The notes beneath the pieces are model-generated. The model saw only the letters and a program-made list of their open reading frames with translations. It did no database searches and was not told the DNA's origin. This document shows positions 1,721 to 55,852 of a stretch of 64,000 nt of DNA, one piece after another. The translations under genes were made by a program, and so were the position numbers. Origin of the DNA: Microthyrium microscopicum. Taxonomy: Eukaryota > Ascomycota > Dothideomycetes > Microthyriales > Microthyriaceae. The DNA is taken from NCBI GenBank assembly GCA_010405405.1, contig MU004237.1, positions 2,305,345-2,369,344 of the forward strand, in the 5' to 3' direction. Position 1 is the first letter of the stretch. Each line of letters begins with the position of its first letter.

Positions 1721-4700
1721 CTACATTGGGCCAGGACTGAACTCATCACTACCTCGCGGGGGAGGTATACGACGTCTTCGAGGCATCTCTCGAAATCTGG
1801 AATGGTCTGAAGGCTTTTCCCACTCTTTCAATACCTCTTCTTCGATCTTGTCGCCGACCGTGATGACTAGAATCGTCTCGCCAAACGTTGCTGCGATGGA
1901 GCGAGCGCCGACTCGTGCCATTACTCCGTGGTCTGGCATGAATAAATCGCCATCTTGTGGTGACAGCGACTTGGTCTCCTCAGGCGTAGTAGGTGAGACT
2001 GTCCATGCTTCCCACTGGCGAACTATCTCTTTCGAGACAAGATGAGAGGTTCGGGAAGGACGTGGCTCCGGCACCGATATTGGCGCGGTTGCTAGTCGAT
2101 GACGGAGTACTGCTCTCGAAGTTTCCGTCGCGGATGTGACTGAAGCCCCTATGTAAGCCTTGAGAGACGACTCCGAGTCAGAAGCGGGTGAAAATCTATC
2201 TTTACCTGACCTGGCGAAATGTTTGTTACTCCTGTCGGTCAAAGAAGATTCCGCAATTTTGATGCCAGCCTTGGACGCTACCTTGGAAAAATCTTTTGTT
2301 GATGGCTTGAAAGATCTGGCAGAGAATTTTGTTAAGGCCTTGGAAGTATCTTTCGCAATCTTTTGACGAACCCCCAGGATACTCTGGTGTCCAGTGACCT
2401 GCCATTTTCCAGGATTCACGACTTGAACCTCAGAAGTTACAGCAGAAGCTACACCGTCACAGCCGCGGTCCTCGCCGCTGTTAGTCGACTTAAGACATAT
2501 TAGCGACGACTCCGAGTTATTTGCTGTGAAGGTGAAGATGATGCAGTTTTGGCTTTCACCATCGGTGTATACAAAGGAGAAGGTGCGAATTGCTGGCGAC
2601 TTGCATTTCGGACATTCTTGAGGGGTGGAGTGAAAGAACCGAACTGTTGATAGCAATGGTTGATGAGGTGGTTTGATTGAACAAATCAGTTGTCGACTGT
2701 GTAGATCAATTAGTTGGAATTGACGTGACGGAAATCGCATTGCAACCAGGACAGATAATCCCGGTACCAAAAACAATTCCCGAATAGGTTCCTCCTCATC
2801 GTGTAAAGCAATTCGTGGATCAAAATCGCTGAGTATGAGTATGGGACTGTTGAGTATGATCGATGGACTTTTCTGCTGTCCATTTCGTTGAGCTTTATCG
2901 GGTACGTAGGAGGATGTCTTGGACATGAAGATTTGCCCATCCCGGCAAACGACCACTATGTAAGGCTTTGCCAAGATTGCTGAACGTGCAAAATCTTCAG
3001 AAATTTGGTGTTCAATCAGTCCTTTCGAGGCATCATCGATGGCAGAGCAAACTGAGTTAGCACTACAATAGATGAGTTTGCCACTGCGTGAGACCACCGC
3101 AAGATGGCAGTCTTTTTCGCCGGTAAGGGAGAAGTGAATCGGTTCGCCCCATGACCAGTCAAGGTCGACTCTCGAAATATGATAGCCAGTCGAACCATGT
3201 AATGTCCATATATACAGCCTTTGTGCTCCTTCATCAGCAAGTGCAGCAATACACTCGCCGTTATCGCTGATTGCCAATCGACTGACATTTCTCAGGCCTC
3301 GGTCGCTTGGAGTTGGAAGGCTTTCTACTAAATAGCTTTGTGTCGTTGAATCGAACATGTACAGGTTCATCGAGTAGTCAAGGCATTTGCAAACAATGTG
3401 CCCTTTTGGTGAACTCGCAAGCTTCTTGACATCAAAATTTCCCTGTTGTAGTCTTTGGACCTGAATCATTCCTGATTGGCGAGTTTGGCCATCCTGAACA
3501 CTTCTAGAGTCCCAGAGCAAATAGTCCATAAGGGCCAGGACTAGTCCCAAAAATATCCCTATGAAGAAGAGTAAGGGCAGAATTTGTTCGCTGATAGTTT
3601 GCCATGAAACGTGGAACACACCAGGATCGGAGACGCGTCCTCGATCAGAACCTTTTATCACCATGATCATTGGATCATAAACCCTAGCTATCATAGTGTG
3701 AGCACCCGGCTTGACGAATTCAAGCACTTCTTGTGATGTTTGATGATCTTGAAGTTTGAGCCAGGACTGCGGTGAGCGGGCTTGATTAATTTGCGGTGAA
3801 TACGAGTGGCCATTAGACTCTAGCTCCTTTCCACGGTGTAGTACGTGGAGCAAACCGTGAACTGAGTGAGACACTCGGCTGAAAATACCATCAGAGTTCG
3901 GAAAGCGCATATAAACGTACAGGACGAATAATCCGGTGATGCTTGAGCCTGCAGCTCGAAAAGAGAGTCCGGTTTTGCCTTGTATAAGTGCTGGAAGCCA
4001 GTACTGTCTCCCTGATAACTTTTGTTGGCCTTGTGATCTCATGTTGGCCTTGTCGATAAACTCTTGCAACTCCATTCTTCTTACATCGACAGAGAGGACT
4101 GCAGTGAAGAAGATGAGATGAAAGAAAAAGTCGAATGACAGAGCGACTCCAGCGAAAACACAAAAGGCTCGAACTCCTGGATTGAAGACTATTGACAGAA
4201 TCCAAAGAATGATAAGATTTTGTGCAGCAACGGCAAGGGACAGATGGCCTACGCGGCCAAGAGCGGATGCGATTCGTTTTGTCAGCTCGACTTGTTCTGG
4301 CTGTTCGACTACGGCATTCATCAAGCGCAACCTAAGAAACATTAGATTATCTTCAGTTTAGTATGGAAGCGAGTACTAACATGTTTTCTAATCCCATGAC
4401 AAACACTACAAAAGGGTATGTCTCTTGAGGAACCCAGCTGAGATCAATGCCTAATAAGCCACATATGGTGAAGCTCGCGAGGATTGATATAACCATCTAC
4501 ACTTGTGAGAAATGGCATATGGATGCAATCATTGCAGTGCTTACTTCGGTAATAACTGTTGCGACTAGGCCAATTCTACTCTTGACAGCAAGAGTTGCCC
4601 GAAGCTTGTAGATGAGGAAACACAGCATGCCGGCATAAGCGATTATGAGCAGACATAAATCTCGCAGGCTGATTAGTTCCCGACTGTAGGCATTCAATTG

Positions 4701-5592
4701 ACTATTCGTGTTGATCCCACTTTGCGGATAGAAAGACCATCGATCCGGATAGTTTGTTGCAAGTTTCATCATTCGCAAGTCCCAGCGTGAAGCCCCAGGA
4801 GAAGGTGACTTTTCAAAAAGGGTCAGGACAATTCCATCGGCTTTGACCAGGCGCTGTCCATTGAAGGATTTGCCGGAGAACACTGAGGTGGGCAACAGGG
4901 TGAGGTTGAGTTTCGTTTGACGGGTCGACTGTCGTTGAATTGTGTTGAGAATGTTCGGGTCAGATGAAATGCTTTCAGAAGAGCAGTCCCAGTACATGAG
5001 AGGTGAGTGAAAGGCTGAAGAGAAGTCATGACTAAAATCCTCGTAGCATCCATTGAGTGGTATTTCTGGTACAGTAGATTGAACATCTGTCTCGGCACTG
5101 GATTTGGACTTGGACTTGGACTCGCCATGAGGAAATTTGTCGAATACGAGAGCATTTTGAATGGTCAAGGCATCCTGGAGGACGTGCGGTTTCAGCGCAC
5201 CCATGTAGTCTCCATGAATGAAGACGCGGCGAACAGCTACATCACCCAAGATGCTTTGGTCTCCGTTGACTGGCCTAGCAGAAATCCAACCATGGCCAGG
5301 AAGGGTTGATATCCCTGAAGCAGAGAAGAGGAACCTATAGCAGACAGTCGCGGAAATCAAGACAGAACCGATGAGAAAAGTGCGCCAGTAGTGAGCAACA
5401 ATGCTTCCATGACGGTAAAAGGCTCTGTAGATGGGATGTTCTGCAGTAAGAACCGGGGGTTCGGTTGTTCTAAAGGAATACCATGTAAGTCATCTATAAG
5501 AATGGTGCTTGCAAAGGAGCTTAGAGTAGTGAGGCCTAAAGTCTTAGAGGCGGAACTTACCCGCGGAAGGGCCCGAGTAGGTACCAGATCAT
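1721..5592 (-). CDS. SREBP cleavage-activating protein (SCAP) homologue, sterol-sensing domain plus WD40
   Basis: Exons on the minus strand: 5561-5592, 4545-5469, 4381-4496, 1721-4331; introns of 91, 48 and 49 bases; 1226 residues. The 32-base first exon encodes MIWYLLGPFR. One N-terminal membrane helix (YWRTFLIGSVLISATVCY) is followed by a luminal loop of about 210 residues. The sterol-sensing domain covers about residues 275-440 and includes GLVATVITE-MVISILASF, VFVMGLENML, ALGRVG and RAFCVFAGVALSFDFFFH. Two more helices follow (LFVLYVYMRF and LPLLFFIGIFLGLVLALM), then a C-terminal cytosolic region with weak WD40 repeats. SCAP escorts the SREBP transcription factor from ER to Golgi when sterol or oxygen is low. 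An SREBP partner is not in the window. The exon joins fall inside conserved sterol-sensing motifs, which supports the model. Confidence 0.88.
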
Positions 5593-44526: not shown

Positions 44527-44534
44527 AGACATAT
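44527..44534. repeat. Left target-site duplication, AGACATAT
   Basis: Eight bases identical to 55845-55852 and directly abutting the first base of the terminal inverted repeat. Neighbouring bases do not extend the match on either side, which fixes the length at eight. Confidence 0.9.
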
Positions 44535-44620
44535 ATGACGGCGCATTATCGCCAACACCGCTCAAGATAAGAACTTCTAAACTTCTAAACTTCTAAACAC
44601 GTTATTATATTACTATATTA
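44535..44620 (+). repeat. Left terminal inverted repeat (86 bases)
   Basis: Starts ATGACGGCGCATTATCGCC and matches the reverse complement of 55751-55844. It contains three tandem 8-base units (ACTTCTAA) where the right end has four, plus C/T differences at the CGCCAACACC-proximal site and at ACGTTAYTATATT. Confidence 0.92.
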
Positions 44621-46891
44621 ATGACGTTACCCTATTACTATATTACTATATTATCCTTTAATCTCTAGAGCTCTAGGTTATTAATTATAGATAATTATAA
44701 TTCTACCTTACTACTTAGAAGTTATTATATTTATATTAGGATATATCTTTTTAATAAGTTAGTATAGTTATATATATATTATATAATAATTAGTAAAAAG
44801 TATAAAGTATAAAGTATATAAATAATTACTAAATATAAGTTTATATTACTATTTAATAAATAGGTATATATATATATATCTACCTAAACTAATTAAGTAT
44901 TTATCTCTTTCCTAAAATTATTCTTTATACTTTTTACTTTATTATCTTATTTATAATAAAATACTAGGCCTTACTTCTATTAATTTAGAGTTCTATTAAG
45001 ATAAAATTAAAAATCTTATTATAAGATAGTTTTTTACTTATTTAAAAGTTATATATTAGCTAAAAGAAAACTATAATATTAACGTTACGCTAAGTATACT
45101 ATATTAAAAGATTAAGTAATAAAAGATCTAATGCCTTATAGCTTTTCTATTAGAGCGCTATAAAAAGCTTAAAGAAATAATAAAATTCTTATTTTATAAT
45201 AAGAATAATAATAAAGATAAAATACTCTTTACTCTTTAAATTATAGAATATTTAATAACTATATAAACTCTCTAGTATTATTAGTAAAAGCTTACTCTTA
45301 AATGCTACTATAAGTTTACGTTAGATAAAGATTTTATAATAGCTTACTACTAAGATAAAGTAATAGTTTTAGTTAAGCTTTATAAAGCTTATTTATTAGT
45401 GTCATTATATAGCTATTAAGCTCTAGCTACTAGACTTTATAAATATAAATACCTAATTCTAGAGGCCTAGATTAATTAAATTTAATAAGATTTAGATCCT
45501 ATTAATATATAAGCTTACTAGAGATAAAAATATTAAAAACGTAGTAAATATAGGACTAAAGGCCTAAACTATATCTAATTAATTAATAAGTATAATAAAC
45601 TTAAAAAAGTAAGAATTAAAATTTATAGCTATATTAATACCTACTTATAAAATATAATCTAGTATTATGTTAGTATATTAAATACTATAAGTATAAGTTA
45701 TTTATATTAGTACTTAGATTAGTTAACTATTAATCTTATAATCCTTTAGTTTATTTACTTAGATTAAGAAGGTAAAACTATAATACTTACTAACGCTTAT
45801 TATAAGTTTATAAAGGCTCTAAAGTATAGAATTTCTTTCTTAGATTATTATCTATATAAGACTAGTATTATAAATTAAAGGATTAAGTACTAATAAAAAA
45901 GCCTTAATAGATTAGCATTAACTAAATAGTAAGTAAGTTATATAACTATATATACTTAAGAGTTAGTACTAATATAATAACTTACTAAATATTCTTTAAT
46001 AAGCTAGTTAACAAAGGTTCTTATTTAAAAAATAAACTTAAAGACTAAATTATAATACTAGCTATTTATCTTCTTATTCTACGACGTATAGTAAAGGAAT
46101 TTATTAATAACTAGAATAATTATAAGATTATTAATAATAAAAAAAAATAACTATACGTAGTAAATAGTAAACCTTAGTATCTATATACTTTTCTTTAAAG
46201 AGCATAAAATATAAGCCTAGTTATTAATCTAGTAGTATTTTAGGCTAAGAAAGTAGTAGTAGGAAACTAGAATAAGAACGCTTTTTTACTATTTAATATA
46301 CTTTAATAGTATAATAAAAAGCTAGATATAATAAAATTTAATCCTAATAGTAACCCCTTTAAAATAAAAAAGGATTAGCATAACCTAATAAATCTATATC
46401 TTAGTTACTATCTCTACTTATAAAAAATAATTAGTTATTATATAGTATTAAGTAATACCCTAATTTTAGCTACTCTTAAAAATTCTTAAAGTAATAAAGC
46501 TTAAATTAGAGATTACTTAAACTACCTTATAGTTTAGGAGATATAAAGGGCTATAAATAAAGATAATAGAGATAATAATATTATAAAGTTTTAGGCTATT
46601 ATAGAATATATAGGACTTAGCTATTTTAATAATAATTAATTAAAGGATAATTCTAATATTAATTTAGCTAAAAAAGAGGAAATTTAAGCTAATAATATAA
46701 AAAGTAAGGATAATATAAAAGAGGAGCTTTAGTTTATATTTAGGCGTTCTAATTAATAATAATAATTTATAATAATTTTATATACTTTAACTACTTTTTA
46801 AAACCTTATTATACTAGTAAAGCTTAATACTATAAGGTATATTATTAGATAAATAGTATATTTCCTTTATATTAAGTAGTTAAAGATTTCT

Positions 46892-46936
46892 AAGTCTCTT
46901 AAGTTTCTTAAATCTCTTAAATCTCTTAAGTCTCTT
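46892..46936. repeat. Five tandem 9-base units inside the element
   Basis: Units are AARTYTCTT (AAGTCTCTT, AAGTTTCTT, AAATCTCTT twice, AAGTCTCTT). A multiple of three suggests an old amino acid repeat, but no frame can be trusted. Confidence 0.75.
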
Positions 46937-49900
46937 AAAAAGGATAATATAGACGTTACTTAAATTTTTAGTTTTTTTCTTTATTCTTAATAGTATTAAT
47001 AATAGAGTAAGGGCTTATAGTAGCATTAGGCTTAGTACTCTTAAGTACTTATCTTATTATTATAAATAGCGTATAAATTAATTATAATTAAGTAACTAAA
47101 ATATAATGCCTAAAGTATTAGGCGCTTATAAGCATATTTTCTAAAAGAGTTATTCTTATGCCTTTAGTTATATCTATTAATTTATAAAAGCCTAGGTAAA
47201 GATAAATAAAAGATAATCTAAGGCCTTATATATTATTACTATTAGTACTATATATAATTAAAAACCTAGATAATATAATTAAGGTTTCTAACTCTAAAAC
47301 GCTACTATAATTATAGTAATATATTAAATAAGAGCTTTTCCTTATTAAGATAAAAGAATATAATAATATTCTATTATAAAATCTAAGTAATAAAAGAACT
47401 CTAAATAATTTTATTAAGATATAATATAGTTAGAGAAGCTACTAGAACTATATAAGATATAGATTAATAAATACTATAGCAAAGCTAAATTTTATTATAT
47501 AAAAGATTTAATAAGGCGTATTAGTAATTCCTAAAAAAAAAGGTATAAGATTCTATTAAGATATAAGTATAAAAACTTACCTTAGTTTAGTTCCTAAAAT
47601 AACCTTAGTATAAATAGAATAGAAAGTAAAAATTTATTTTTATATTATTAACTATAAGACGTAGGGTAACTATATATAATTTAACTTTATTAAAGAATAT
47701 TATAAGTAGCTTAGTTATTAAGGTAGCTTATATTAATGTATATAATAACTTTAGTAAATATAGACCTTTTTTAAAGTAACGTTAAGAGTATTTAAGACTT
47801 TATTTATAAATACTTAACTCCTTATTTAGATAATATAGTACTTACTAACTATAATAAAGTCTTTACTTATAATAGAGGTATTTAAAACGTTAAACTTGCT
47901 AGTAAAATTAAACTAAGTAAAAGACCTATAGATTACGTATTTTTAAAGAATAAGAAGAGTAAGACTTTAGGCTTTTCTTTAAAATAAGGAGAGCCTCTTA
48001 AGATTAGCCTTATTAATAGAATATATAACGTTATTAAGCTAGCTAGCATTACTATAAGTAAGTTTATTAAAAGAGCTATCTTTAATATTAATAAAAAGAA
48101 TTAACTATAAATCTACTTAATTATATATAAGTATTAAGAAATTATTCTAGACTCTAATTCTAATATGCCTATCTTATTAGTACCTACCTTAAAGACTTTA
48201 AAAATACTTACTCTAAAGACTCTAAAGATATACTAATAGCTACTCTTAAAATAAACCTTTTTAAAACTTAGGTTAAATAAAGTTATTAAAGCTAATCTAG
48301 GTACTTAGGTAAAGCTTAAGAAAATTAAGCTTAATATAGACGTCCTTAAGAAAATAAAAGCTACTATACTAGAAGCTAAGCAAATTATAAAGAATTTATA
48401 AATAGTAAAGAATCTAATAAAAAATAAAAGTAAATAAGACTCTAAGTTTACTATAAATAATAAAGATAATAGCCTTAGTAATAAGAAAAAAGCTATAGCT
48501 AGTAGTAAAAATAATAATTCTAATGCCTTATTATTATTACTAAGAATATTATTTTAGTAACTAAGAGAGAAAAAAGCTACTAAAAAAGAGAAAAAAGCTA
48601 CTATTACTAAGTAAGAAAAGAAAACTACTAAATAAGATATATAAAAGTAAGCTATATTCTAAGTTAAGCTATTAAAAAATAGTATATTTACTTATATTTC
48701 TTAATCTTATAAAGTAATACTTACTTTAATAAATAAATAAGTAGCTATAGCTATTAAAGTAGATATTCTTAAGGCAACTAAGGCTAACGTAATAATAAAG
48801 AAATATAAAGGGCGTAGAGAAAAGAATATAAAATATAAATATAAAGATAAAAAGCAAAGTAGCACTACTTAGTTACGTTAAAAGGCTATTTAGATATCTT
48901 TACTTATTTAATACTTATTATAATTTTATTATACTTATTTTACTCTTTTCTTTACTAATTCTTAAATAATTAAGGTAGTATTAACTTACTAATAATTACT
49001 TAATAAATACTTTCTTTATAAACTTAGTAAAAGTTCTATATATAATAAATATAATGCTATCTTAATTTAGTAAAGAAGCTAATAAAACCTATAACTAGTA
49101 CTAGCCTATTATTTCTAACTCTATTACTAAAGTTACTAATCTAAAAAGAATATATTAAATACTTAATTAAAAAGTAAAAAGTAAGTATAGAAAACTTACT
49201 AGGGTTTCCTCCTAATAGTAACGCTATAATTAGGATTAAGCTATATTTAGTAAGTAGATCCTACGCTAAGTCTACTAAACTATAAGTTACTTATAACTTA
49301 ACTAAACTTTAATAAACTCTAGTTTCTTAAAATAATTATTCCTTAAAGTTAACTAAGTAATCTTTTATTAAGCTTTAAGTATTACGTTCTTTATATATAA
49401 ACCTTAAACTTAAATAAAACTAAATCTTAGAAAAGGCTAATACTTTTCCTAAAATAGAACTAACTAATCTAATAATATATTCTTATATAGGTACTATATA
49501 TATACTATAAAAGAATAAGTAACTAGCTTATTAAACTATTATGCTCCTTCTTTATTCTACTAAACTAATACTTTTATAATACTTAAGTAGTTTATTAATT
49601 TATAAGTTAAACCTAAATAAATATTAGTAAGTATAATAATTAATATAATTTATTAAATAGAAGTTATAAAACATAGTATAGAAAACTACTATATAAAGAT
49701 AAAATAGTTAAAAAATAAGCTTAAGGAATTTATATAATATTACTATAAATACTACTAGAATTAGAACTACTAATTAAAAATTAAATTAATTAAAAGTAGT
49801 ACTAAATTATAAATCTAGAAGCTAGGGAAATTATTAGTTAAGTATTAATATATTTCTATAAAAAATTAATTATATTTCTATCTAATACTATTAATTACTT

Positions 49901-52900
49901 ACTAAAAAATATAATAATAGTTATTAAGCTCTAACTCTAATTCTAATAAACTTTCTTAGGCTATTAGTCTATAGAGAAGTTATAGTCTTATTTAAAGTAG
50001 ATATAATATTAGTTAGTAAAAAATAACTTAAGAAGGATTAATAAAGTTAATTATTAAGCTACTAGGTACTTAAGGATAAGAATAGTAGGCTTTTTAATAT
50101 CTAAACTATATCCTTTTAAGACTCTCTAATTAGGAGTAACTCTATTTTTTCTCTTATACGTAATATAGTTATTTATATCTTTATTATTAAATTTATAATA
50201 GCGTTCTAACTACTTCTTACTATTATATTTATAAAGAGGGTAGCCTTTATTAAAGTTAACTTCTTAAACTAATTACTTATTCTCTCCTTATTCTATCTTT
50301 ACTCTATTTATCTTTTTTAAAGCTCTTAAAGATATATTAATTTTTTTAGCGTTATTTAAAATATAAATAAGCTAGTAATACTCTCTTTATTTAGTACTAT
50401 TTATCTAAATAAAGCTTACCTTAGCTTTACTTATACTTTTAAGAATTCTTCTTATTTACTTTTACCTTTTAGAAGATTTAAGTTACTAAACTTAACTAAT
50501 AAGCCTATTATATTACTATTACAATCTATATATATCTTTATCTTCTCTATTTTTAAACATACTCTAAAAATATCTAACTTCTCTTTACTATTTATATAGT
50601 GCTAAAGGTCCTTATAAAAAAGCGTTAGGTAAGATTCTTTAATTTAATATTATATTATATTAATTTATATTTAGTTATTAGTATTAAGGACTTAATTAAA
50701 TCTATAACCTTTAGAGTAAATATTATTAAGATAATATATAAGACAAAATAAAGCTTATAAATTCTTAGCTACTCCCTAATAAACTAAGAAAGTAGCTAGA
50801 AACGTATAAACTTTATTTATTTTAAAGACTTTTTAGCTAAATACTTCTATATTAGAATATTTTATAAAGTAGTAACTTTAACTATAAAGTAAGATTTAGA
50901 GAAAGTTATACCTATATTAACTTATAATTTTAATCTACTCTTTATTCTAGATAATATACTACTAAAAAGTATATTATACTAAAAGAGGGTTAAATTTAAC
51001 TTATATATACTACTCTTAGTATTTTTAAGTTTTTATTTTTTAATATTAGACCCTAACTACCTTTTAAATAAACTAAGAAAATAATTAAGGTCTAATATAG
51101 CTTTAAAGAAGCTAATGCCTATCTAAATTAGGATTTTTATTAGTTTAATATTAAGTTAGCATTCTTTTTAATAGTAAAAAGAAATAAATAAATTTTTACT
51201 TATTAGTTATCTTATTACTAATATATATTTCTTTTATATAAAGTATTACTTTAATTAATAATATAGTAGATAAAGATTTAGTACTTTATTAGTATATATA
51301 TAATAAAGTCCTTAGTAAAAATATACTATTATATTAGATATAACTATCTTTCTAAAAAGAAGTACTACTAGCTATACTTTAATTAATACTTATAATATAT
51401 ACCTAAGTTTATAATTAGCTTTAACCTATTAATATAATATTATCTCTATAAATAGAAGACTTTCTAAAAAGATAAAAAAACTAAATATATAATAAGTATC
51501 TAGAGTAGATAAAGTAATATACTTACTTTACTATTCTAAGTATAGTAATAATAAGTAAAAGTAAATATATTAAAAAATAACTACTAAAATAAATAGAGAT
51601 ACTAAAAGTAATCTCTACTATTTTAAAGTAAATTAATAGATAATAAAATAAATTTAGAATTTATCTAAAGTATATATTATAGGCTTAAATCTAGTAAAGA
51701 ATAGTCTATAATACGCTTTTTATATTTTTATTTCTATTAGTTATAATATATAAAATATAAGCTTACTATTCTATACCTTTAGATATTTTAAATAAACTCT
51801 TAGTTTATTCTTAAAGTTATTAATTATTATTAAGTAATAAAGTAGATAAATATATAAGCTCTATAAGTTAAAAATTTAACTACTTAGATTTTATAATATC
51901 TCTTTATAAATAAGCATAATAACTAGTTAGTAATTACTATAGCTAGTAATATATTTTTAGATATTAGCTAACTTTAAGCTACTTTTTTACTACTTAATTA
52001 TTTAGTATTTAGATATATACTATAGTTATTACTTTTACTTACTAGAGATTAGTACTTTTTAACTTAAGGAGAATGCTACTTAAATAAAAATATTTAGAAG
52101 TAGTTAACTAGTCTATCTCTATATATTAATAAACTAATAATAATATTTATTAATATCTATTTACGTTATCTAGTATATATTAATAGAAAGTATATTCTTA
52201 TCTTTCTTATAATATATTATTAATTATATACTAAATAATAAAGTTTCTCTATTTTTTTAAAGACTTCTATATCTATATTCTTTTAATAATAATATTTACT
52301 ACTTTAGATTAATAATATATACTAAGATTTCTATCTAAGGAAAAATTAAATATATTTAAAGTATAACTACTAGCTAATAAATAATATAGTTAAATTACCT
52401 TAATAAGGCTATCTAAAGTCTTTATCTAATAAACTTAACTTTCTTAGAAAAAATATATACTTTATACTAAAGTAAAGAGTATAACCTTTATTATACGTTA
52501 GGGCTAATATATTAGATATACCTATTAATACTAAATTAAGGTAAAATTACTTTTTATAAATAAGAATACTCTTAGTAAAATTAAAAGCTTATAGTTTATA
52601 TAGGTTAATAATCCTATAACCTACTTATACTATTTATATTATTTCTAATATAGTGCTTATACTTCTTAAGGATATAGAGTAGTATATAGAATTATCTCTA
52701 TATATAATAATAATAAGGTTATAATAATATTAGAAAGTCTTTAGAGAGCCTAGTTTAAATAAAAATTATAGTAGAAAATTATAATAGTTAGCTTTAGTTT
52801 TTAGGCTTTACCTTCCTTTTAATTACTAACTTACTAATATTTAGTTTAAATAGTATTTAAATAATATGCTAGTTTTTAACTAACTTTTCTCTATATTATA

Positions 52901-53142
52901 AAATATAAGCTTCTTTAATATATAGAATAACCTAATTGCTATACCCTAGACTAGAGTATAACTACTATATAAGTATAATAAGTTATATAAAACTATAGCC
53001 TTAGAAGAGTATTATTAGTAAAATAGGTAAAGAAAGAATAAGATTAGACTTAAAAGGTATACTAGAATTACTCTATTATAACTAGTAAGCTTATCTATAA
53101 TATAAAATCTCTAAATAAGAAAGTAATTAGTTATTATTAATA

Positions 53143-53174
53143 AGCCTACTATAGATAGTAGTCTATAGTAGGCT
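53143..53174. repeat. Perfect 13-base hairpin inside the element
   Basis: AGCCTACTATAGA and its complement around a 6-base loop, with weaker pairing outward. May be a relic of a local inverted duplication. No function assigned. Confidence 0.6.
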
Positions 53175-53862
53175 ATAACTAATAAAGAGTAGTAATATTA
53201 TTTATATCTTATATATAGTATCTTTAAGTAGTAAGTAGTTATAGTATTTAGTATAACTAAAATACTAATTAATTAATAGTTAAAAACTACCTATATTACT
53301 ATAAATTAACTTAGCGTAATATAATATATTAATATAAAATATATTAATATTAAAGATATTAAGACTTTTTTTTAAAAGAAAAAAATTAATATAAAAAATA
53401 CCTTATTATTTTAATCTTCTCTAAAAAGCGTATTAAAAAAAAGTAACTAATAAAGTATAATAAGATATTTCTAATAATAAATACTAAAATATAAATAGTT
53501 ATAAAGATTATTATAATATTATTACCTTAAAAGAGTCCTAATATTAATTAAGATCTATTAAGATACCTTTATAGTAATTTTACTAAGTATTAGTATAAAT
53601 ATACTACTTAATAAGCTTTATTATAGAAAGCTTTGCTTACCTAAGTAATACGTAGTATTAAATAATACTACTTAGTAATAGAAAAGCTTTATAGCTATCC
53701 TAGCTAGTTAATATTTATATATCTAGAAAACTAGATTAGGTTATAAAAATAGGTTAAACTAATAATCTCTATTAGTTTTAGCTACCTTAAAGCTAAGTAA
53801 TTATTAAATAGTACTTTAAAAAGTAACTATAAGTTATTCTTTTTGTTTTACTAAAATAAATA

Positions 53863-53933
53863 TATATAATAAGTAAAATAATATCTTAATCCCTTATATA
53901 ATAAGTAAAATAATATCTTAATCCCTTATATAA
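53863..53933. repeat. 32-base tandem duplication inside the element
   Basis: About 2.2 copies, built on AAGTAAAATAATATCTTAAT. The copies are identical although the surroundings are heavily mutated, so the duplication arose after the mutation. Confidence 0.85.
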
Positions 53934-55750
53934 GGTATCTCTTTATAAAGGATAGATATCTTAATATATTTTAATAAGTTATTTATAAAGTATACGCTAT
54001 AAATAAAATACTAAGTATTTTACTATAAGGTATCTTACTATATATATTCTCTTAAGTAATCTTTAAGAAGAAATAGTATAGTAGGCTTTATAATTAATTT
54101 TATATATATAGAAGTATACTATATTAGAAAGTATAGAATTAAGAGTAAAGAGAGCTTTTTAACTAAGAAGGCTTACTTTATAATAGTAGAACGTTATTCC
54201 TAAAGTAATACTTACTACTAAATTATTATAGTAAGACTACGTAAGTATAAAACTACTATATAGTATAAGCTTAAATAATTACTATAAATTCTATATAATT
54301 TTAAGTTATATAAATTTTTTTAGATAATTATAAATAATATTTTTTCCTTTTTTTATAAAATAGCTAAAAAAAAATTATTTTTCTACTAACCTAGCTCTTA
54401 ATATAGCTATAAAGAAACTTAATAAGACTTAGATACGTATACTACTTACTATATAAACTAGCTTAGCGCTACTTAGATATAATAGCTAGATTAAAGTTAT
54501 AATTTCTCTCTTACTTAATACTAAAAAATCTTACTTTACTAAACCTTTTCTATTATAATTTTATTACCTAATTATATTAGTTATACTTAATTTAATAAGA
54601 AAAGATAAACTTATATATAATTTAGCTCTATAAAATTATTATATAGTAGTGTTAATTATCTTAGTACTAATTTTATACTATTTTTTTACTTTTTTTATAT
54701 TCTTATAGATATAGTATTCTATAATAATAAGCTAGCTCCTTAGATATTTAAGTATAAATATATTTTATAAAATAATTAGTATTTATAAAGAATACTTACG
54801 CCTCTAGCGTTAGTAGTTTTACTAATTAATAAGCTAAATAATATATATAATAATTTAGTACGTAAGCTAAGGAATATAAACCTACTAAAACGTAACTTTA
54901 CCTTATATAATATAAATAGAGAAGTCTAAAATACTCTATATTAACGTCTTAAAGCTTATATAATTATATTAAAAGCTAGAAATTACTTTTAAGGATATAA
55001 ATTAGTAGTAAAGAAGTATTAGAAAATATTATAGCTAAAGGAATAGAAGTTTTTAGTAACTTAGACTTACTAAAAGTTAGTAAAGTAGTTATAAGTAAAA
55101 AGGACAACGTATTAAAATAATATTATTTAGTAAAGGATTATATCCTCTTTACTATTAAGATATAATGCTTAACCTAAAAAGATAATATATAAAGAAATAA
55201 CCTAAGAACCTATAAAAGAAATAACGCCTTAAAAAGAATATTATAGCTAAGGCTTACCTATAAGCTAATTTAGTAAGAAACTATTATTACTAAGCTTTAC
55301 TAAACTTTACTATAGTTATAAATTTATAATCTTACTTTTATCCTTTTAAGGAAGAAGCTTTATAATACTTATTCTAATTAAAACCCTTAGGTAGTATTAT
55401 TTTATTTATTAAAGCTATTTTAGGAAAGATATTATAAGTATAGTTCTCCTAAAGAATATTTCTTTATTAAATTTAATAAGCTTCTCTATAAACTAATATC
55501 TTTACTTATAATATATCTCTATAACTATACTAAAATCTATATATAGCTTACTAGACTCTTTTATATAAGCTATAGTATTATATAAGAGTACTACCTTACT
55601 AAATATTAGTAACCTTATTATAAATAAAGATAATTTCTATTACTAAAATATAAAAAATAATTATTACTAAAAATACTATTTAGAGATAACCTTAACTAAG
55701 AGTAGAGTAGAATAAATATTAGAATTATTATTAATAAGGGCTAACGTTGC

Positions 55751-55844
55751 TAATATAGTAATATAGTAACGTGTTTAGAAGTTTAGAAGTTTAGAAGTTT
55801 AGAAGTTCTTATCTTGAGCGGTGTTGGCGGTAATGCGCCGTCAT
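55751..55844 (-). repeat. Right terminal inverted repeat (94 bases)
   Basis: Reverse complement of the left repeat with four rather than three ACTTCTAA units, which accounts for the 8-base length difference. Outer 45 bases (GCCAACACCGCTCAAG region) still contain CpA, unlike the interior. Confidence 0.92.
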
Positions 55845-55852
55845 AGACATAT
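55845..55852. repeat. Right target-site duplication, AGACATAT
   Basis: Exact copy of 44527-44534, directly adjoining the end of the right inverted repeat. Confidence 0.9.

What the first reader, a model, noticed from the sequence alone, without database searches (positions are those of the whole stretch)
44535..55844. Large RIP-saturated element with clean ends and perfect 8-base target duplication
The interior has lost almost every CpA and TpG over about 11 kb, while the outer 40-50 bases of both inverted repeats keep CpA (CCAACACC, CTCAAG) and the target duplication AGACATAT is intact. Mutation at this level normally hits all of a repeat. The contrast suggests either that the ends were under selection because the mutated copy was still mobilised in trans, so insertion here is younger than the mutation, or that RIP stops short of repeat ends. 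The combination of size, long TIR with 8-base subrepeats, and an 8-base duplication does not match a family I can name with confidence.
Basis: partly seen in the sequence, partly recalled or inferred. Interest (0 to 1): 0.75.

Follow-up and report, generated by a model that had tools for sequence, protein, structure and literature searches.

The report
RIP-mutated transposon with shared cargo block
This is a dead, heavily mutated 11.3-kb fungal DNA transposon whose clean-looking ends are explained by mutation fading out at repeat edges, but half of it is a nearly identical block also carried by four other, very different transposon families and in part by chromosome-end repeats of the same genome.

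Summary
An 11,312-bp TIR element (44534-55845) lies between PUF6-like and TFB4 genes, saturated with RIP. The target duplication is 6 bp (GACATA), not 8. The genome holds six large copies of this family (F1), related families F2 (five copies) and F3 (two), two further loci, and mostly un-RIPped mini-elements. TSDs are 6-7 bp in F1 and 5 bp in F2. Termini (TAT..ATA), TSDs and an integrase-like ORF point to the IS3EU superfamily; sequence profiles could not confirm it. Clean ends are general: in three families RIP fades over the last ~100 bp, and 11 of 26 full-size ends still carry RIP-type changes. F1 copies differ by 0.02-0.4% transversions but 9-11% transitions, and no pair has a common RIP pattern, so they were most simply RIPped independently after inserting. 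The surprise: the right ~6 kb is nearly identical (about 0.5-1% transversions) between families whose transposase halves differ by 15-35%. Up to 4.5 kb of it also sits in repeat arrays; the array beside a telomere holds its last ~1.5 kb. A cargo block was exchanged between transposon families; its genes are mostly unidentified.

The parts
44528..44533 (.). left target-site duplication GACATA (6 bp)
   Evidence: sequence
55846..55851 (.). right target-site duplication GACATA (6 bp)
   Evidence: sequence
44534..55845 (+). whole element, 11,312 bp, TIR DNA transposon (family F1), RIP-saturated
44534..44643 (+). left terminal inverted repeat region (TATGACGGCGCATTA...), with 8-base sub-repeats at 44572-44598; RIP-poor edge zone; inner limit approximate
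55736..55845 (-). right terminal inverted repeat region, sub-repeats at 55773-55807; RIP-poor edge zone; inner limit approximate
45036..46202 (+). broken transposase/integrase-like frame (14 TAG and 29 TAA inside); three-base rhythm of transversions between families at 45500-45900
   Evidence: identification as an integrase core is by recalled motif pattern, not confirmed by profile searches
47530..49030 (+). second + strand coding stretch of the family-specific half (approximate, carried over from the C7 copy), by a RIP-invariant purine/pyrimidine codon test
49450..55600 (.). cargo block: nearly identical in F1, F2, F3 (and in F4, F5 where read) although the left halves differ by 15-35% transversions; borders approximate
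50087..50251 (-). about 55 codons related to an open host frame (C1:3421216-3422253, 345 aa stop to stop, no Pfam family above its cut-off)
51006..55550 (.). part of the cargo block that also occurs, whole or in part, away from transposase and TIRs in arrays with tandem repeats of 94 and about 132 bp; the array beside a telomere holds its last ~1.5 kb
54200..54600 (.). variable patch with two haplotypes that cut across transposase families (window copy, C4 and F4 share one; C7, F2, F3 and F5 the other)

Best explanation
A cut-and-paste-type TIR DNA transposon, most likely of the IS3EU superfamily, inserted between PUF6 and TFB4 and duplicated 6 bp of target. It belonged to a recent burst (four F1 copies differ by 0.02-0.07% transversions). 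Each copy was then mutated by RIP independently and in place, and RIP efficiency falls to a fraction over the last ~100 bp of a repeat, which leaves the TIRs nearly clean. The element is a mosaic: a family-specific left half (TIR, integrase-like transposase, second gene) and right TIR, joined to a ~6-kb cargo block that has been exchanged by recombination or gene conversion between five transposase families, and up to 4.5 kb of which also lives in arrays at or near contig ends and elsewhere. Shown: boundaries, TSDs, RIP gradient, lack of a common RIP pattern, mosaic structure, one telomere neighbour. Inferred: the transposase class, the order of events (insertion before RIP), recombination as the means of exchange.
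For: TSDs and TIRs of 7 F1, 16 F2 and 2 F3 elements. RIP indices. RIP by distance from the end at 26 ends of 13 copies, in four contexts with C7 as reference, and end by end. F1 copies: transversions 0.0002-0.0042, transitions 0.087-0.108, no pair with a common RIP pattern. Mosaic: transversion fraction in 500-bp windows 0.15-0.35 in the left 4.5 kb and 0-0.03 from 5.5 to 11.0 kb; the block also at F4 and F5 and in a C14 array; in the right part with one variable patch left out, F1-F2 and F1-F3 0.17-0.22%, F1-F4 and F1-F5 0.11-0.17%, C14 array 0.81-0.89%, within F1 0.02-0.07%. Cross-family haplotypes in the patch. Transposases of the five families are 31-48% identical in read-through. Telomere repeat at the C12 contig start, followed by an array. 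Published IS3EU traits: TA..TA termini and TSDs usually 6 bp (PMC10045372, passages; PMC12730594, passages).
Against: Pfam, PDB and rva_4 profile searches gave no integrase match for the RIPped transposase, so the superfamily rests on termini, TSD and a motif pattern recalled from memory. F2 makes 5-bp TSDs, shorter than usual for IS3EU. Rust IS3EU end in TAYGG, these in TATGAC. RIP states are weakly correlated between copies (phi up to 0.16), and among four F1 copies retained CpA sites coincide 1.8-2.8 times more often than expected; I ascribe both to site mutability. The left 1.5 kb of the block differs by 2.7-3.0% transversions between F2 and the others, so it is less alike than the rest. 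Cut-and-paste after RIP is not strictly excluded. No other RIPped element class with unique flanks was obtained as an edge control.
Confidence: 0.68

Rival explanations
1. The element was RIPped elsewhere and later mobilised in trans; selection for transposition kept the TIRs clean, so the insertion is younger than the mutation.
For: The TIRs are the least mutated part; a Styx copy with a non-functional integrase was mobilised in a pedigree (PMC10853768, passages), so movement in trans is real in this kind of element. Retained CpA sites coincide more often than chance among four F1 copies.
Against: No pair of F1 copies has a common RIP pattern, although moves that raise the copy number of a mutated element would leave one. 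11 of 26 ends carry RIP-type changes and none any other kind in the outer 23 bp. The fade-out is gradual and also holds for CpT, CpC and CpG.
Confidence: 0.12
2. The shared block is an independent mobile element that inserted into each transposon family, rather than exchanged cargo.
For: Part of it (51006-55550) occurs away from transposon ends, in arrays near contig ends and elsewhere.
Against: The block begins and ends at nearly the same place in F1, F2 and F3 (4.95-5.05 kb and about 11.15 kb in C7 coordinates); independent insertions would be expected to land at different places.
Confidence: 0.15
3. The block is ancestral to all families and was kept alike by strong purifying selection while the transposase halves diverged.
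For: All 15 loci with a clear transposase match carry at least part of it.
Against: Transversion columns in the block show no codon-phase bias (52, 55 and 45 of 152; low power), and near-identity over 6 kb with haplotypes that cut across families needs recent common descent of the block.
Confidence: 0.08
4. Polinton/Maverick-like or LTR-derived element with an integrase and 6-bp duplications.
For: 6-bp TSDs and an integrase-like frame; size over 11 kb.
Against: The termini are inverted, not direct, repeats; no polymerase, ATPase or retrotransposon domain in six-frame Pfam scans of most of the C7 copy and of the C14 array, though RIP weakens these negatives.
Confidence: 0.05

Closest known systems
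IS3EU superfamily (fungal members in rusts and Tuber; PMC12730594, PMC10045372, passages)
   Same: TA..TA termini, TIRs over 30 bp, TSDs usually 6 bp, cargo genes beside the transposase, cargo genes passing between transposon lineages (reported there for TET/JBP genes)
   Different: F2 has 5-bp and F1 6-7-bp TSDs; termini TATGAC rather than TAYGG; no TET/JBP or alpha-kinase gene recognised; transposase class not confirmed by profile search because of RIP
Styx of Zymoseptoria (PMC10853768, passages and part of one section)
   Same: assigned to IS3EU, integrase, 36-bp TIRs, 6-bp TSDs, four ORFs, a copy with a broken integrase mobilised
   Different: 7.9 kb against 11.3 kb; Styx is reported as restricted to its genus and as escaping RIP in Z. 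tritici; no cargo block shared with other families in the text read
X26 subtelomeric repeat of Stagonospora nodorum (PMC3017866, passages)
   Same: 4,628 bp, subtelomeric, RIPped; of the length class of the array part of this block (about 4.5 kb)
   Different: [quoted passage not shown] here the genome's own RecQ frames gave no match to the block, and X26 itself was not compared
MITEs mobilised by a full-length relative
   Same: mini-elements of about 0.55-0.6 kb share the outer TIR and the TSD length with the full families
   Different: nothing unusual, except that most are nearly free of RIP

Membership tests
IS3EU superfamily | DDD/E transposase of the IS3EU/GingerRoot clade | tested here: inconclusive
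   A conserved frame at 15 loci plus one weak one, with an integrase-like pattern in alignment A1 (pattern recalled), but no Pfam, PDB or rva_4 match
IS3EU superfamily | TA..TA termini | tested here: met
   26 of 26 full-size ends and 24 of 24 mini ends begin TAT (ends found with TIR patterns allowing 6 mismatches)
IS3EU superfamily | TSD usually 6 bp | tested here: inconclusive
   F1: 6 bp in 5 of 7, 7 bp in 2 of 7; F2: 5 bp in 15 of 16; F3: 5 bp in one, 6 bp with one mismatch in the other
IS3EU superfamily | TIR over 30 bp ending TAYGG..CCRTA (rust TET+ families) | tested here: not met
   TIR is over 50 bp but begins TATGAC; the published motif is for rust TET+ families, not for the whole superfamily
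RIP | C>T above all at CpA on both strands, limited to repeated DNA | tested here: met
hAT / Zisupton (8-bp TSD) | 8-bp TSD | tested here: not met
Polinton/Maverick | protein-primed polymerase, ATPase, protease | tested here: inconclusive
   none seen in six-frame scans of the first 9.5 kb of the RIPped C7 copy
Telomere-linked RecQ helicase | RecQ helicase domain | tested here: inconclusive
   none of the 37 listed TIGR00614 matches lies at the block or array loci, and the genome's own RecQ frames have no match there; RIP weakens both

The most novel reading that the evidence does not exclude
A cargo cassette circulates as a unit among five divergent TIR transposon families and the chromosome ends of one genome: the transposons swap it by recombination at homologous borders and may ferry a subtelomeric sequence between telomeres and the chromosome interior.
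Probability: 0.3. Interest if true: 0.7.

Novelty: new variant of a known kind. Interest (0 to 1): 0.5.

Why it matters
It turns a puzzling 'clean-ended' element into three testable statements. First, RIP loses efficiency over roughly the last 100 bp of a repeat, which has to be allowed for whenever clean TIRs are read as signs of recent movement. Second, transversions alone can rank the ages of RIPped copies, here showing a burst followed by independent mutation. Third, a large cargo block can be shared between transposon families far more closely than their transposases, and with telomere-adjacent repeats, so family trees of transposases and of cargo in RIPped genomes need not agree.

Tried and rejected
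Six-frame Pfam scans of the first 9.5 kb of the least mutated F1 copy, of shorter stretches, of 14 transposase rows and of the C14 array gave no family. A PDB profile search gave three proteasome-subunit sequences at E 0.27-0.30, read as chance. PF24764 (rva_4) had no match in the genome. RecQ as the identity of the block: not supported. Finding reading frames by stop columns common to all copies failed, because the sites are saturated. The purine/pyrimidine codon test put 39 of 56 windows of its own training genes in the true frame and was ambiguous in the block. A codon-phase test in the block showed no bias. An edge control on LTR elements failed: the two fetched loci are AT-rich and RIPped throughout, without unique flanks. 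hAT/Zisupton was rejected on TSD length.

Not examined or left out of counts: L020 (C4:736126-737188), fetched for a weak TIR hit, matches the fetched F1 mini-element locus over 359 bp. C10:729924-731115, a further F2-type pair of ends 1.2 kb apart, and single-end hits at C10:944605 and C10:122212. F4 (C6) and F5 (C5:2523620) are separated by transposase identity (39% and 37% to C7; 39 of 125 to each other) and tied to the block by position; their TSDs were not determined. The C2 copy of F1 and the left part of the C5 copy contain runs of N and were compared only where letters were present. Only one F2 and one F3 copy were read in full; the others were read at their ends.

An earlier reading that C7 carries a diverged block was dropped: 15 or 16 of its 19 differences from the window copy in the right part lie in or beside one variable patch.

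Papers: PMC12730594 outline and passages, PMC10045372 passages, PMC10853768 passages, outline and part 1 of 2 of section 13, PMC4858203 passages, PMC7296669 passages, PMC3017866 passages; all other papers only as search listings. I saw no report of a RIP edge effect in the listings of searches or of such a shared block in that of one search; these cover only the held library, and the listed papers were mostly not opened.
Full report
What is there. The window belongs to an unnamed 36.9-Mb genome in 20 contigs (C8:2305345-2369344), evidently a filamentous fungus. Between a gene with CPL and PUF domains and Tfb4 lies an 11,312-bp element, 44534-55845, with long terminal inverted repeats that start TATGACGGCGCATTA and carry 8-base sub-repeats. 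Inside, CpA and TpG are almost gone (observed/expected 0.044 and 0.056, left flank 1.13 and 1.11) and GC is 18.9%.

The target duplication. Searching the genome with the outer 166 bases gave 16 matches: both ends of five copies of 11-15 kb, the ends of a copy now 55.5 kb long on C5, both ends of a 0.59-kb mini-element and one weak hit. With the TIR read as TATGAC...GTCATA, the duplications of these seven F1 elements are 6 bp in five (window GACATA, C12 GGCTCA, C2 TTCTGA, C7 CAAGGG, C5 CACAGC) and 7 bp in two. The window's 8-bp reading is 6 bp plus two chance matches with the TIR ends. A second family, F2, has five copies of 11.4-11.7 kb and about a dozen mini-elements; 15 of the 16 examined (5 full, 11 mini) have exactly 5 bp, and one mini has no clear duplication. 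A third family, F3, has two copies of 11.2-11.3 kb; one has 5 bp, the other 6 bp with one C/T mismatch. The C5 copy is one F1 element split by about 44 kb of other DNA, and the C12 copy holds an insertion of about 4 kb.

The clean ends. At 12 ends of F1, 10 of F2 and 4 of F3, CpA+TpG stand at 13-15 per 100 bp in the flanks, 9-15 in the outer 30 bp, 5-10 at 60-90 bp, 0.3-4 at 90-120 bp and 0-1.5 beyond 160 bp (at 30-60 bp F1 has none, its sub-repeats showing no such site, and F2 and F3 have 10 and 14). With the least mutated copy, C7, as reference, the other five F1 copies have lost 15% of its CpA sites at 0-30 bp (7 of 46), 68% at 60-90 (21 of 31), 93% at 90-130 (13 of 14) and 88% in the deep interior (766 of 871). 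CpT, CpC and CpG fade in the same manner (CpG 5 of 56 at 0-30 bp against 437 of 782 inside). The edge is not sacrosanct: 11 of 26 ends have at least one C>T or G>A in the outer 23 bp, and none has any other change there. In the outer 24 bp of F2, 4 of 140 sites are changed at full-size ends and 1 of 308 at mini ends. So RIP reaches the ends, but at a much lower rate. The zone has a similar width in three families whose TIRs differ in sequence. I take this as an edge property of RIP; selection on the TIRs would not be expected to protect CpT, CpC and CpG over ~100 bp or to leave mutated TIR ends in place. [quoted passage not shown] neither passage describes a fade-out inside the edge. An independent control on LTR elements failed.

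Order of events. Between F1 copies, transversions are 0.0002-0.0042 per site and transitions 0.087-0.108; among the window, C12, C4 and C2 copies transversions are 0.0002-0.0007. Of 55 transversion columns, 23 are private to C5, 18 to C7, 6 to the window copy, 2 to C12, 1 to C4 and none to C2. Among 2,279 transition columns no pair of the six copies has a common RIP pattern (phi from -0.01 to 0.16). At 244 CpA sites where at least one of five copies retains C, retained sites coincide 1.8-2.8 times more often than expected in the six pairs of window, C12, C4 and C2, and below expectation in the four pairs with C7; I read the excess as site mutability, but it is the one result that leans towards common history. 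The simplest order is a burst of nearly identical copies followed by independent RIP of each. Cut-and-paste of a mutated copy with loss of the donor would leave the same trace and is made unnecessary, not excluded.

What kind of element. Read with stops as X, 45036-46202 of the window belongs to a protein found at 15 loci plus one weak one (17 rows, two of them parts of the split C5 copy). F2 and F3 are 44-48% identical to F1 and two more loci 37-39%; these two are distinct from each other (39 of 125 letters alike). The alignment shows a pattern that I recall from fungal integrase-core proteins (I[DN]AY.R.I..YY, FI..[DN].G.[EK], N..I[EK]), and transversions between families have a three-base rhythm at 45500-45900 (26, 29 and 65 by phase), as expected of a protein under selection. 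But Pfam, PDB and rva_4 profiles found nothing, so the class is inferred. IS3EU families have TA..TA termini and TSDs usually of 6 bp (PMC10045372); fungal IS3EU carry extra genes (PMC12730594); Styx is a known ascomycete case with an integrase, 36-bp TIRs, 6-bp TSDs, and a copy with a broken integrase that moved (PMC10853768). This element fits best there, with 5-bp duplications in F2 and TATGAC termini as deviations.

The mosaic. One copy each of F2 and F3 was read in full. F1, F2 and F3 differ by 15-35% transversions over the left 4.5 kb, then by 0-3% in 500-bp windows from 5.5 to 11.0 kb, and again by 11-18% in the last window, which holds the right TIR. Over 5.0-11.0 kb F1 and F3 differ by 23-33 transversions, F1 and F2 by 33-65, F2 and F3 by 59, against 0-22 within F1 (the lower figures are for the C2 copy with N runs). 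The left 1.5 kb of the block is less alike: F2 differs there from the others by 2.7-3.0%, F1-F3 by 0.5-0.6%, F1-F4 by 0.9-1.1%. The right part is also present at the F4 locus on C6 (0.1-0.5% from F1) and the F5 locus on C5 (0.4-0.5%). Leaving out one variable patch (54200-54600), the right part differs by 0.11-0.22% between F1 and the other families and by 0.02-0.07% within the three F1 copies compared. In the patch the window copy, C4 and F4 share one haplotype, while C7 (F1), F2, F3 and F5 share the other. Blocks have therefore moved between transposase families, recently compared with the age of those families. All 15 loci with a clear transposase match carry at least part of the block; the weak sixteenth, C11:869592, showed none in the list, which was cut.

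The chromosome-end link. The right part of the block (51006 to about 55550) also occurs, whole or in pieces, away from transposase matches on C14, C4 (two places), C16, C11 and C12; tandem repeats of 94 and about 132 bp were found in the C14 and C12 stretches read. On C12 the contig begins with CCTAACCCTAACCC, a telomere repeat, followed at once by such an array with the last ~1.5 kb of the block. On C11 it runs to the last base of the contig, without a telomere repeat in the fetched stretch. The C14 array lies about 11 kb from a contig end; the C4 places are about 49 kb from an end and deep inside (positions), so not all are subtelomeric. The C14 array differs from the transposon blocks by 0.8-1.2% transversions. 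In the three stretches read, matches stop before the TIR. The direction, from chromosome end into transposon or the other way, is open.

What the block encodes. On the minus strand at 50087-50251 about 55 codons match an open host frame of 345 aa at C1:3421216-3422253 (C7: 53% over 55 aa, E 1e-14 in a search of a few loci; 50% over 58 aa, E 1e-13 in the genome); that protein has no Pfam family above its cut-off. A second, weaker match is C1:2564807-2564911 (57% over 35 aa, E 3e-4). Nothing else was identified: no Pfam family in the C14 array, no RecQ match, although a subtelomeric RIPped repeat of similar length in Stagonospora nodorum, X26, has been assigned to a RecQ helicase (PMC3017866) and could not be compared.

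Verdict. The element itself is a RIPped member of what is most likely a known kind. The clean ends and the perfect duplication are ordinary once the other copies are seen. The shared cargo block is the part worth following.

Noticed in passing
L040-L050 (C8:1317722, C10:1434173, C17:250783, C2:19052, C1:428734, C11:1704959, C12:217515, C4:602779, C2:3342049, C2:3765653, C12:1301060): Eleven F2 mini-elements of 554-607 bp; nine have CpA indices of 1.29-1.47, like the host flanks, two are lower (L040 1.08, L048 0.80), so repeats of this length mostly escape RIP.
   Followed up: partly
L017 (C2:2071323-2071909): The F1 mini-element is itself RIPped (index 0.60, TA/AT 1.67) although only 0.59 kb long.
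   Followed up: no
L009-L010 (C12:34557-49857): The C12 copy of F1 carries an insertion of about 4 kb, milder in RIP than its host element.
   Followed up: no
L018-L019 (C5:2106965-2162538): One F1 copy is split by about 44 kb of other DNA yet keeps its TIRs and 6-bp TSD.
   Followed up: partly
L065:2317-3354 and 4112-4702 (C1:3421216 and C1:3423011): Two neighbouring host frames with CxxC motifs; the first is related to a piece of the cargo block.
   Followed up: partly
L063 (C12:1-3100), L064 (C11 end): Arrays built from the end of the cargo block: on C12 beside a telomere repeat with 94- and ~132-bp tandem units, on C11 at the last base of the contig.
   Followed up: partly
C2:1275804, C2:944033, C13:845224, C6:2138264, C9:1500854: Integrase_H2C2 domains in open frames without stops (up to 1,443 aa), so some LTR-type integrases here have escaped RIP.
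   Followed up: no
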